Source of the DNA: Capillimicrobium parvum
GTDB lineage: Bacteria; Actinomycetota; Thermoleophilia; Solirubrobacterales; Solirubrobacteraceae
Length of the DNA: 64,000 nt
Direction: 5' to 3'
Assembly: GCF_021172045.1 (NCBI RefSeq)
Contig: NZ_CP087164.1
Coordinates: 5,146,001-5,210,000 of the forward strand
Shown here one piece after another: positions 57,050-59,300 of this stretch (the first letter of the stretch is position 1; each line of letters starts with the position of its first letter). The notes under the pieces were generated by a model. It had not been told where the DNA came from, did no database searches, and saw nothing but the letters and a program-made list of their open reading frames with translations. The position numbers and the translations under genes are program-made.

Positions 57050-57364
57050 TCATCGGCACAGGGTCTGCAGCGTCTCGAGCGCGTGCTCCGGCGCCCGCGG
57101 CATCGCCTCGAAGGCCGCCGCCGCGGCGCGCACCTCCGCGACGGTGGCCGCGGGGCGCTCCACGCAGAACCGGGCGAGCCAGCGCACGGCCGCGCGCTCG
57201 AACCGGCCGGGCTCGGCCTGCGAGATCGCCATGCACACCGACAGGGCGTCGCCGAGGTTCACCTGCGGCAACTCGGCTGCGGCGGCACGGATCAGGTCCA
57301 TGTTGCCCGTGGCGAGGGCGCGGCGGAAACGGGCATACGGTCTGCCGGAAGAGGTCACGAACAT
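57050..57364 (-). CDS. Small protein of unknown function under a LexA-type box
   Basis: A 104-residue soluble helical protein: RFRRALATGNMDLIRAAAAE, LPQVNLGDALSVCMAISQAE, RAAVRWLARFCVERPAATVA and APEHALETLQTLC. I recognise similar unassigned proteins in Solirubrobacterales. The ATG at 57362-57364 lies inside a perfect SOS box (57358-57371), so if LexA binds there the gene should be DNA-damage-inducible. A later start at Met 22 is an alternative that would leave the box upstream of the coding region. Divergent from the GT2-NodB gene. Confidence 0.7.
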   Translation of the reverse strand: MFVTSSGRPYARFRRALATGNMDLIRAAAAELPQVNLGDALSVCMAISQAEPGRFERAAVRWLARFCVERPAATVAEVRAAAAAFEAMPRAPEHALETLQTLCR

Positions 57365-57371
57365 ATGTTCG
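57358..57371. promoter_or_regulatory. Perfect LexA (SOS) box
   Basis: CGAACATATGTTCG is a 14-bp perfect palindrome identical to the Gram-positive/actinobacterial SOS consensus CGAAC-N4-GTTCG. It covers the start codon of the 104-residue gene and lies 85 bases before the start of the divergent GT2-NodB gene. No second box was noticed elsewhere in the window. Confidence 0.65.
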
Positions 57372-57455
57372 CATCTGGAGCCGACGACCGCGGCGACGCT
57401 TCGCGGCTCTGGTGGGTCTCCCGGGTTGCGGCGGGCCCACTAGTAGCTTGAGCTC

Positions 57456-59300
57456 ATGCCGACGATCCGCGTGGCCGTCTGCCTCGATCGCTTGTCCTCC
57501 GCGCTTCCCGAATGCCTCGGCGTGCTCGGCCGAGAGGTCGACGAACCGATCGTCGCTGCGGCCGGCCTCGCCCCCGCCGAGGTCGTCGCGCTGCGCCAGC
57601 TCGCCGGCCGGCTCGCCCCGGGGGCGGAGGTGGTCGAGGCGGCGCCGGGCATCGCGCAGGCCCGGAACGCGGCGCTTGCCGCCTGCGGCACCGAGGTCAT
57701 CGCGTACCTCGACGACGACGTCGCCGTCGCCCGGGGGTGGCGTCAGGCACTGCGTTCCGCCTGGGACTCGGCGGCCGACGACCGGGCCACGATCGGCGGC
57801 CCGATCGCCCTGCGCTTCGACGCCCCACGCCCGCGGTGGCTCGGCGACGGCCTCCTCGTCGCGCTCGCCCCGCTCGACTACGGGACCGAGGCGATGGAAC
57901 TGGACGCGCAGCAGCGCACCTTCCACGGCGGCAACGTCAGCTTCCGCACGGCCGCGCTGCGGGGCGCCGGCGGGTTCTGGCCGTCACGCGGCGGGCAGCG
58001 CGACTGGTTCTCGGAGGAGCATCACGCCCAGCGCGAGCTCGCCGCCGCCGGATGGACCGCGGAATATCGCCCGGAGCTTCGGGTCGAGCGCGTCGTCCGC
58101 GTCAGCGAACTGCGCAGCCGCGATCTCGCCGCACGCCGGCTGCGCTACGGCGGGCGCTCACAGCTCGTAGGGCGCCGGCGCGACGTGGCTGACGCGCTCC
58201 GGAACGCGGCGAGCGGCGCGGCCGGGGCCGGAGCGGCGCTCGTGCGCGGCGACCTGGCGACCGCCACCGACCGGGCCGGGCGCGCGGCCGAGAACGCGGG
58301 CGCCCTCGCGGCGCCCATCGTGGCCCACCGCGACCTGCAGCCCGCCACGGATGCCACGCCGTTCCGTCCCAGCGTCCCCGAGCCGCAGCGGCGCCTGCCG
58401 CGAATTCCGGCCCTCCGGCGCGCCTCGGACGCGCCCCGCGCGACGGCCCTGCTCTACCACCGGGTCGCGGACGTGGCCCACGACCCGCTGGGGCTCGCGG
58501 TCTCGCCCGCGGACTTCGTCTCGCACATCGACGCCTTGGGCGACCGCATCGTGCCCCTCGAGCAGCTGGCCTCCGGCGACTTCCCGGACGGGGCCGTGGC
58601 CATCACGTTCGACGACGGCTACGCCGACAACCTGCCGGCGCTGCGGAACGTCGGCGTCCCGGTCACGGTGTTCATCTCGACGGGCCACGTCGCCGACGGC
58701 CGCGGGTTCTGGTGGGACGAGCTGGTGCGCCTCCTGCACGCCGCACAGGCGACCCAGCCGCTCACGGTCACGCTCGACGGCGATGTCCGCACCTGGCCCG
58801 CGCACGACGCCGTGCAGCGCGAGCTCGCGCGGCGCGGCCTGCACGGATGGCTGCAGGTGCAGACACCCGAGCGCATCGAGACCGCGCTCGCGCAGGTCCG
58901 AGCTTGGGCGGCCGCGCCGGATGCCGAGGATCCGCGCCCGCTCACCGTCGACGAAGTGCGAGAGCTCGCCAAGCACGTGACGATCGGGGCGCACGGCCGC
59001 AGGCACGTCTCGCTGCGCTGGATGACGGCGGACGTCCGACGGACCGAGATGCAGGACAGCCGCGCCGACCTGGCCCGCTGGGTCGGATATCCGCCGACGG
59101 CGTTCTCGTATCCGTTCGGCGTCCCCGACCGAGACGTCGACGACTCGGTACAGCAGCTCGCCCGTGCTCTTGGATACACCGCCGGGGTCGTCAACGCGCC
59201 GGAGCTCGTGACGCCCGCCAGCCCACCGCTCGCGATTCCCCGCTTCGTCGCACCGCCGGTGCGCGGCGACGAACTCGTTCTACGAGTTTCCGGCAAATAG
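57456..59300 (+). CDS. Fusion of a GT2-type glycosyltransferase and a NodB polysaccharide deacetylase
   Basis: A 614-residue two-domain enzyme. Residues 1-250 are a GT-A glycosyltransferase: AQARNAALAACGTEVIAYLD with the metal-binding DDD (86-88), FHGGNVSFRTAALRGAGGFW and the acidic SEEHHAQRELAAAG. Residues about 325-614 are a NodB domain: catalytic Asp pair in ITFDDGYADN (384-389) and metal His pair HGRRH (513, 517), with FSYPFG later. A 75-residue Ala-rich linker joins them. One protein could add an N-acetyl sugar and then deacetylate it, although the compartments would need to match; no signal peptide is present. Confidence 0.85.
   Translation: MPTIRVAVCLDRLSSALPECLGVLGREVDEPIVAAAGLAPAEVVALRQLAGRLAPGAEVVEAAPGIAQARNAALAACGTEVIAYLDDDVAVARGWRQALRSAWDSAADDRATIGGPIALRFDAPRPRWLGDGLLVALAPLDYGTEAMELDAQQRTFHGGNVSFRTAALRGAGGFWPSRGGQRDWFSEEHHAQRELAAAGWTAEYRPELRVERVVRVSELRSRDLAARRLRYGGRSQLVGRRRDVADALRNAASGAAGAGAALVRGDLATATDRAGRAAENAGALAAPIVAHRDLQPATDATPFRPSVPEPQRRLPRIPALRRASDAPRATALLYHRVADVAHDPLGLAVSPADFVSHIDALGDRIVPLEQLASGDFPDGAVAITFDDGYADNLPALRNVGVPVTVFISTGHVADGRGFWWDELVRLLHAAQATQPLTVTLDGDVRTWPAHDAVQRELARRGLHGWLQVQTPERIETALAQVRAWAAAPDAEDPRPLTVDEVRELAKHVTIGAHGRRHVSLRWMTADVRRTEMQDSRADLARWVGYPPTAFSYPFGVPDRDVDDSVQQLARALGYTAGVVNAPELVTPASPPLAIPRFVAPPVRGDELVLRVSGK

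What the first reader, a model, noticed from the sequence alone, without database searches (positions are those of the whole stretch)
57050..57371. Perfect SOS box over the start codon of an unknown small gene
CGAACATATGTTCG at 57358-57371 is exactly the consensus bound by LexA of Firmicutes and Actinobacteria, and a chance 14-bp palindrome of this sequence is unlikely in a 73% GC genome. It straddles the ATG of a 104-residue protein without recognised domains. A LexA-controlled unassigned protein is a good candidate for a new DNA-damage function. The box could also influence the divergent GT2-NodB gene.
Basis: partly seen in the sequence, partly recalled or inferred. Interest (0 to 1): 0.62.

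Follow-up and report, generated by a model that had tools for sequence, protein, structure and literature searches.

The report
Conserved DNA-damage-controlled small helical protein gene
A small gene of unknown function in a soil actinobacterium carries the on/off switch of the bacterial DNA-damage (SOS) response fused to its start codon, and this arrangement is kept in dozens of related species, so it is very probably a real and so far undescribed member of the DNA-damage response.

Summary
CGAACATATGTTCG at 57358-57371 is the only exact copy in the 5.95 Mb genome, where about 0.0016 are expected by chance. The host lexA, dnaE2, imuB, dinB and uvrA carry the same operator type. The start codon is probably GTG 57358 (102 aa), not ATG 57364. 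In 54 aligned promoters the box is embedded in (A/G)TG-CGAACAT-RY-GTTCG, and translation starts at box base 14 or a few bases after it. This fits an extended -10 element inside the operator and a leaderless mRNA. The composite TGCGAACATRYGTTCG occurs in 131 of 151 genomes of the order (none in the reversed-pattern control) and also precedes dinB, dnaE2, imuB and a radical-SAM gene. The protein family is restricted to this class of Actinobacteria in the samples searched, is under purifying selection and matches no known family. AlphaFold predicts three helical hairpins resembling a mini-TPR domain. In all seven closest relatives ligD (end joining) lies nearby. SOS control is very likely; the molecular role is unresolved.

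The parts
57358..57371 (-). LexA operator (SOS box) CGAACATATGTTCG, a perfect palindrome
   Evidence: conserved at the same place in orthologues
57365..57373 (-). putative extended -10 promoter element TG-C-GAACAT embedded in the operator; it predicts +1 at 57358
   Evidence: TG 93-96% and A6/T7 96-98% conserved in 54 promoters although the palindrome does not require it; inference, no transcription start was mapped
57050..57358 (-). 102-aa SOS-controlled small protein with GTG start; predicted three-hairpin (mini-TPR-like) all-helical fold
   Evidence: orthologue alignment, dN/dS 0.10-0.29 in nine close pairs, AlphaFold pLDDT 91
57362..57364 (-). alternative ATG start inside the box (104-aa version), judged less likely
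   Evidence: comparison of orthologue starts
57456..59300 (+). divergent GT2-NodB gene: neighbour, not considered part of the unit
   Evidence: the divergent neighbour is not conserved

Best explanation
This is a stand-alone SOS effector gene. In undamaged cells a LexA dimer sits on CGAACATATGTTCG. That operator also contains the extended -10 promoter element and the first base of the start codon, so LexA blocks RNA polymerase directly. After DNA damage, RecA-stimulated LexA self-cleavage frees the site and transcription starts at about base 57358, giving a leaderless mRNA that begins with its GTG start codon. The product is a neutral, soluble protein of about 102 residues made of three helical hairpins (mini-TPR-like), which most likely works as a protein-protein adaptor or inhibitor during the damage response; a partner in double-strand-break repair or in division control is the leading guess. 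Shown: operator, its conservation, its sharing with lexA and SOS polymerase genes, coding constraint, predicted fold. Inferred: LexA binding, promoter position, leaderless initiation, damage induction, adaptor role.
For: The box is exact and far above chance. It lies at the start of 28/30 best loci with at most 1 core mismatch (27 exact), and of 26/46 weaker or more distant homologues, against a background of 0.043 per 150-bp window. LexA is present with its own upstream box, and it has LexA_DNA_bind and Peptidase_S24 domains. dnaE2, imuB, dinB and a radical-SAM gene in the same genome have start codons at -1 to +2 nt from the box end. The composite motif occurs in 131/151 genomes of the order, with 0 control hits, and 48 of 50 sampled sites abut a start codon. 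The box ends so close to the start that no Shine-Dalgarno sequence fits. The protein is under purifying selection. Two AlphaFold models from two orders agree (pLDDT 91 and 96), and the second has mostly TPR chains as its best structural neighbours. ligD lies nearby in all 7 closest relatives, and these form a clade with the window gene (support 0.96).
Against: No expression or binding data. The -10 hexamer GAACAT has G rather than T at -12, and no -35 was identified; a partial TTGAC at about -25 to -21 remains unexplained. Structural matches are all weak (no Foldseek E below 0.1; best Z 7.2). ligD linkage is confined to one clade and absent in this genome (ligD at 4.46 Mb). The family is patchy (47/151 genomes of the order).
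Confidence: 0.83

Rival explanations
1. The gene is the lineage's SOS cell-division inhibitor: a soluble, fast-evolving protein made only after damage that blocks the divisome, working like SulA, YneA, DivS or SidA but unrelated in sequence.
For: Small, fast-evolving, stand-alone gene under tight LexA control. From general knowledge, such inhibitors are usually lineage-specific.
Against: No division-gene neighbourhood, no similarity to a named inhibitor. Absent from most genomes of the order.
Confidence: 0.2
2. The protein is an accessory factor of double-strand-break repair (LigD/Ku end joining), induced by SOS.
For: ligD lies nearby (within about 1.5 kb, directly adjacent in three of the loci read in full) in 7/7 closest relatives despite local rearrangements. 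A paralogue lies about 1 kb from another ATP-dependent ligase gene. Ku is present in 44/47 genomes with the family and 65/104 without it.
Against: Linkage is limited to one clade and may be a single inherited event. Ku co-occurrence is only p=0.03 after allowing for genome size, and phylogeny was not corrected for. Three genomes have the family but no detected Ku. Unlinked in the window genome.
Confidence: 0.2
3. It is a mobile-element gene (plasmid, integrative element or prophage origin) that uses SOS for timing and has been domesticated on the chromosome.
For: Some paralogues, each with its own box, lie near a ParA-like gene or an integrase, and others near what look like IS110-type and ArdC-like genes. 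Patchy distribution and multiple copies per genome.
Against: No match in the plasmid, phage or viral-contig collections. Most copies, including this one, lie among ordinary chromosomal genes.
Confidence: 0.15
4. The box mainly controls the divergent GT2-NodB gene, and the small ORF is incidental.
For: The divergent start is only 85 bp away.
Against: The box follows the small gene, not the glycosyltransferase, through the relatives examined. The promoter signature is directional. The ORF is conserved as a protein.
Confidence: 0.03
5. Chance occurrence of the palindrome.
For: None.
Confidence: 0.005

Closest known systems
LexA (SOS) regulon of Actinobacteria, e.g. Streptomyces venezuelae (PMC9380542)
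   Same: CGAAC-N4-GNNCG-type operator; dnaE2, DNA polymerase IV, uvrA, lexA and a radical-SAM gene are also LexA targets there.
   Different: In the 'Selected members' table of that paper the listed boxes lie mostly 14-200 bp before the start, with no shared spacing. Here the box abuts the start codon in nearly every target sampled, as part of a fixed 16-bp composite. The small protein family was not found outside the class.
Leaderless SOS-related gene lexA of Mycobacterium tuberculosis (PMC2897130)
   Same: Transcription and translation start coincide.
   Different: There it is lexA itself. Here lexA has its box about 40 bp upstream of the start, while the effector genes look leaderless.
Tetratricopeptide-repeat (TPR) domains
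   Same: Three antiparallel helical hairpins; weak TPR hits in single members; TPR chains dominate the structural neighbours of the second model.
   Different: No significant profile match; much shorter and more divergent than standard TPR proteins.
SOS cell-division inhibitors (SulA, YneA, DivS, SidA, SosA)
   Same: Small, lineage-specific, LexA-controlled (analogy from general knowledge).
   Different: No sequence relation detected; no functional evidence.

Membership tests
LexA/SOS regulon | Operator matching the host LexA consensus at the promoter or start | tested here: met
   Exact CGAACATATGTTCG at 57358-57371; lexA, dnaE2, imuB, dinB and uvrA of the same genome carry the same operator type
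LexA/SOS regulon | Operator conserved before orthologues | tested here: met
   28/30 best loci (own included) and 26/46 distant homologues with at most 1 core mismatch
LexA/SOS regulon | Host encodes a cleavable LexA | tested here: met
   LexA_DNA_bind plus Peptidase_S24 domains; aligns along its length with solved LexA repressors
LexA/SOS regulon | LexA binding in vitro and induction by DNA damage | not testable with these tools
   needs EMSA and RNA measurement
Leaderless SOS genes | Start codon at or next to the operator, no room for a Shine-Dalgarno sequence | tested here: met
Leaderless SOS genes | Transcription start coincides with the start codon | not testable with these tools
   needs 5'-end mapping
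TPR proteins | Significant TPR profile match | tested here: not met
   Only single members reach E 0.009-0.02
TPR proteins | TPR-like helical hairpin fold | tested here: inconclusive
   Two confident models; TPR chains among best neighbours but Z at most 7.2
NHEJ (LigD/Ku) accessory factor | Genetic linkage to ligD or ku | tested here: inconclusive
   7/7 closest relatives linked to ligD, but not the window genome or other clades
Known SOS division inhibitors | Sequence homology to a named inhibitor family | tested here: not met
   No such Pfam or NCBIfam hit

The most novel reading that the evidence does not exclude
Thermoleophilia-type Actinobacteria possess a private class of SOS effectors: a mini-TPR adaptor, induced from a fused operator, promoter and start codon, that steers a core damage process (end joining or the division checkpoint) in a way not known from other bacteria.
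Probability: 0.3. Interest if true: 0.75.

Novelty: new variant of a known kind. Interest (0 to 1): 0.56.

Why it matters
It adds an uncharacterised, conserved protein family to the DNA-damage response of a large and little-studied class of soil Actinobacteria. It also shows that in this order the SOS regulon uses a compact design in which repressor site, core promoter and start codon are one element. That gives a 16-base signature able to read out SOS regulons across hundreds of uncultured genomes, and it makes the function of this protein directly testable.

Tried and rejected
(1) Chance palindrome: rejected by genome-wide counts and orthologues. (2) Control of the divergent GT2-NodB gene: rejected, neighbours not conserved. 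(3) Known families: Pfam, NCBIfam, PHROGs, PADLOC and PDB sequence searches gave nothing significant across members. (4) Phage or plasmid family: no match in phages, plasmids or IMG/VR, although some paralogues sit near mobile-element genes. (5) DNA mimic or DNA-binding protein: median pI 6.4 and near-zero charge argue for neither. (6) Fold identification: Foldseek against PDB and BFVD gave no E below 0.1; only TPR-like resemblance. (7) PafBC-type promoter: the spacing of upstream TTGAC/TG elements does not fit the published RecA-independent consensus (recalled, not tested). (8) Family outside the class: phylum-wide samples gave only two weak hits inside long unrelated frames. (10) Literature: no LexA study found for Solirubrobacter, Conexibacter or Thermoleophilia.

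Full report
Observation. CGAACATATGTTCG occurs at 57358-57371 exactly as reported and is the only match within two mismatches in the window. The window lies in a single-contig genome of 5.95 Mb. There the pattern has six sites with at most one mismatch and none in the reversed control, and CGAAC-N4-GTTCG has 16 sites against 3 in the control. Base composition predicts 0.0016 exact copies per genome.

Start codon. Orthologues whose first possible start lies 1-4 bases after the box begin MTS(Q/D/E)GS.Y.RF. In the window this corresponds to GTG at 57358, whose G is the last base of the box, giving 102 aa.

Conservation. A search of 151 genomes of the same order found homologues in 47. Of the 30 best loci (own included), 27 carry an exact CGAAC-N4-GTTCG at the predicted start and one has a single mismatch. 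Of 46 further loci, many of them weak homologues or from other families of the class, 26 do with at most one mismatch. The background rate is 0.043 per 150-bp window, giving binomial p values of 3e-36 and 8e-24 (phylogeny is ignored, so these are only indicative).

The host SOS system. lexA is at 1,764,210 with a box about 40 bp upstream of its start, and its product has LexA and S24 peptidase domains. Boxes lie at the starts of dnaE2, imuB, dinB and a radical-SAM gene, and just upstream of uvrA. A similar radical-SAM gene, DNA polymerase IV, dnaE2 and uvrA are LexA targets in Streptomyces venezuelae (PMC9380542).

A composite element. Aligning 54 promoters of the family gives (A/G)TG-CGAACAT-(A/G)(C/T)-GTTCG followed by the start codon at box base 14 or slightly later. 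The TG before the box (93-96%) and A6-T7 in the centre (96-98%) are far more conserved than their palindromic counterparts, so LexA alone does not explain them. Read as promoter positions, TG falls at -15/-14 and GAACAT at -12 to -7, which puts +1 on box base 14, the G of GTG. This is an inference, but it agrees with leaderless initiation, because the box leaves no room for a Shine-Dalgarno sequence. The 16-mer TGCGAACATRYGTTCG is present in 131 of 151 genomes, with no control hit in any. Of 50 sampled sites, 48 abut a start codon: by inspection imuB (16), radical SAM (8), dinB (6), dnaE2 (5), HTH-type and HNH-type proteins, XRE regulators, and this family. That sample was drawn with the TG required, so it does not independently test the TG. 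Among own-genome SOS genes found without requiring it, five of six have TG (with the window gene).

The protein. It is a real coding sequence: dN/dS is 0.10-0.29 for nine close pairs (pairs with the window gene give 0.42-0.49, probably inflated by saturation). It matches no Pfam, NCBIfam, PHROGs or PADLOC family above cut-off and no PDB sequence. AlphaFold gives six helices at pLDDT 91 for the window protein and the same fold at pLDDT 96 for a member from a different order of the class. Structural neighbours are weak, but for the second model they are mostly TPR domains, and single members give marginal TPR and HEAT hits. The most conserved residues (L35, D37, A38, L39, R59, W60, R63, E67 in the 102-aa numbering) lie on helices 3 and 4, and R59-R63-E67 would form one face of helix 4. 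A protein-protein adaptor is the most natural reading.

Context. The family was found in this order and in a second order of the class, and not elsewhere in the phylum sample or in phage, plasmid or viral collections. Neighbours differ between clades, so the gene is a stand-alone unit. In the seven closest relatives ligD lies nearby: directly upstream on the same strand in three loci read in full, and with intervening genes in others. These seven and the window gene form one clade (support 0.96), but in the window genome ligD is about 0.74 Mb away. Ku is commoner in genomes with the family (44/47 against 65/104), but genome size accounts for most of this (residual p = 0.03). Some paralogues with their own boxes lie near mobile-element genes.

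Verdict. LexA control of a conserved small gene is as well supported as sequence allows, and the whole order uses this operator-on-start design. The biochemical role is open; the leading guesses are an adaptor in break repair or a division checkpoint protein. The finding is a new protein family in a known response plus a compact regulatory variant, and is of moderate to good interest.

Noticed in passing
L002:1501-2089 (own genome 394,314 onward): A LexA box (CGAACGTATGTTCG) sits 42 bases before a tRNA-Lys(TTT) gene, followed by an HNH-like ORF and a tRNA-Glu. An HNH-like relative with the composite box but without the tRNA is in L174, which suggests an SOS-controlled HNH/tRNA cluster.
   Followed up: partly
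L006:2-1501 (-) (own genome about 3.14 Mb): The SOS-controlled radical-SAM gene appears to contain an intein (weak Hint and Intein_splicing hits); the related ORFs in L172, L184 and L189 show similar insertions by eye.
   Followed up: partly
L052:111-122 (own genome 1,648,109): A strong LexA box precedes what look like phage-type genes, possibly a LexA-controlled prophage.
   Followed up: no
L083, L084, L086: Paralogues of the small protein, each with its own box, lie near an integrase (L083), a ParA-like gene (L084) and apparent IS110-type and ArdC-like genes (L083/L086).
   Followed up: partly
upstream of family genes, 8-12 bases before the box: TTGAC or TTGAA occurs at a fixed spacing in about a quarter of the promoters, too close to be a normal -35 element.
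   Followed up: no
L180:1518-1706 and L190/L193: Other small SOS-controlled ORFs: a 63-aa protein (MTSREAQELG...) and an XRE-type regulator, both starting directly at a composite LexA box.
   Followed up: no
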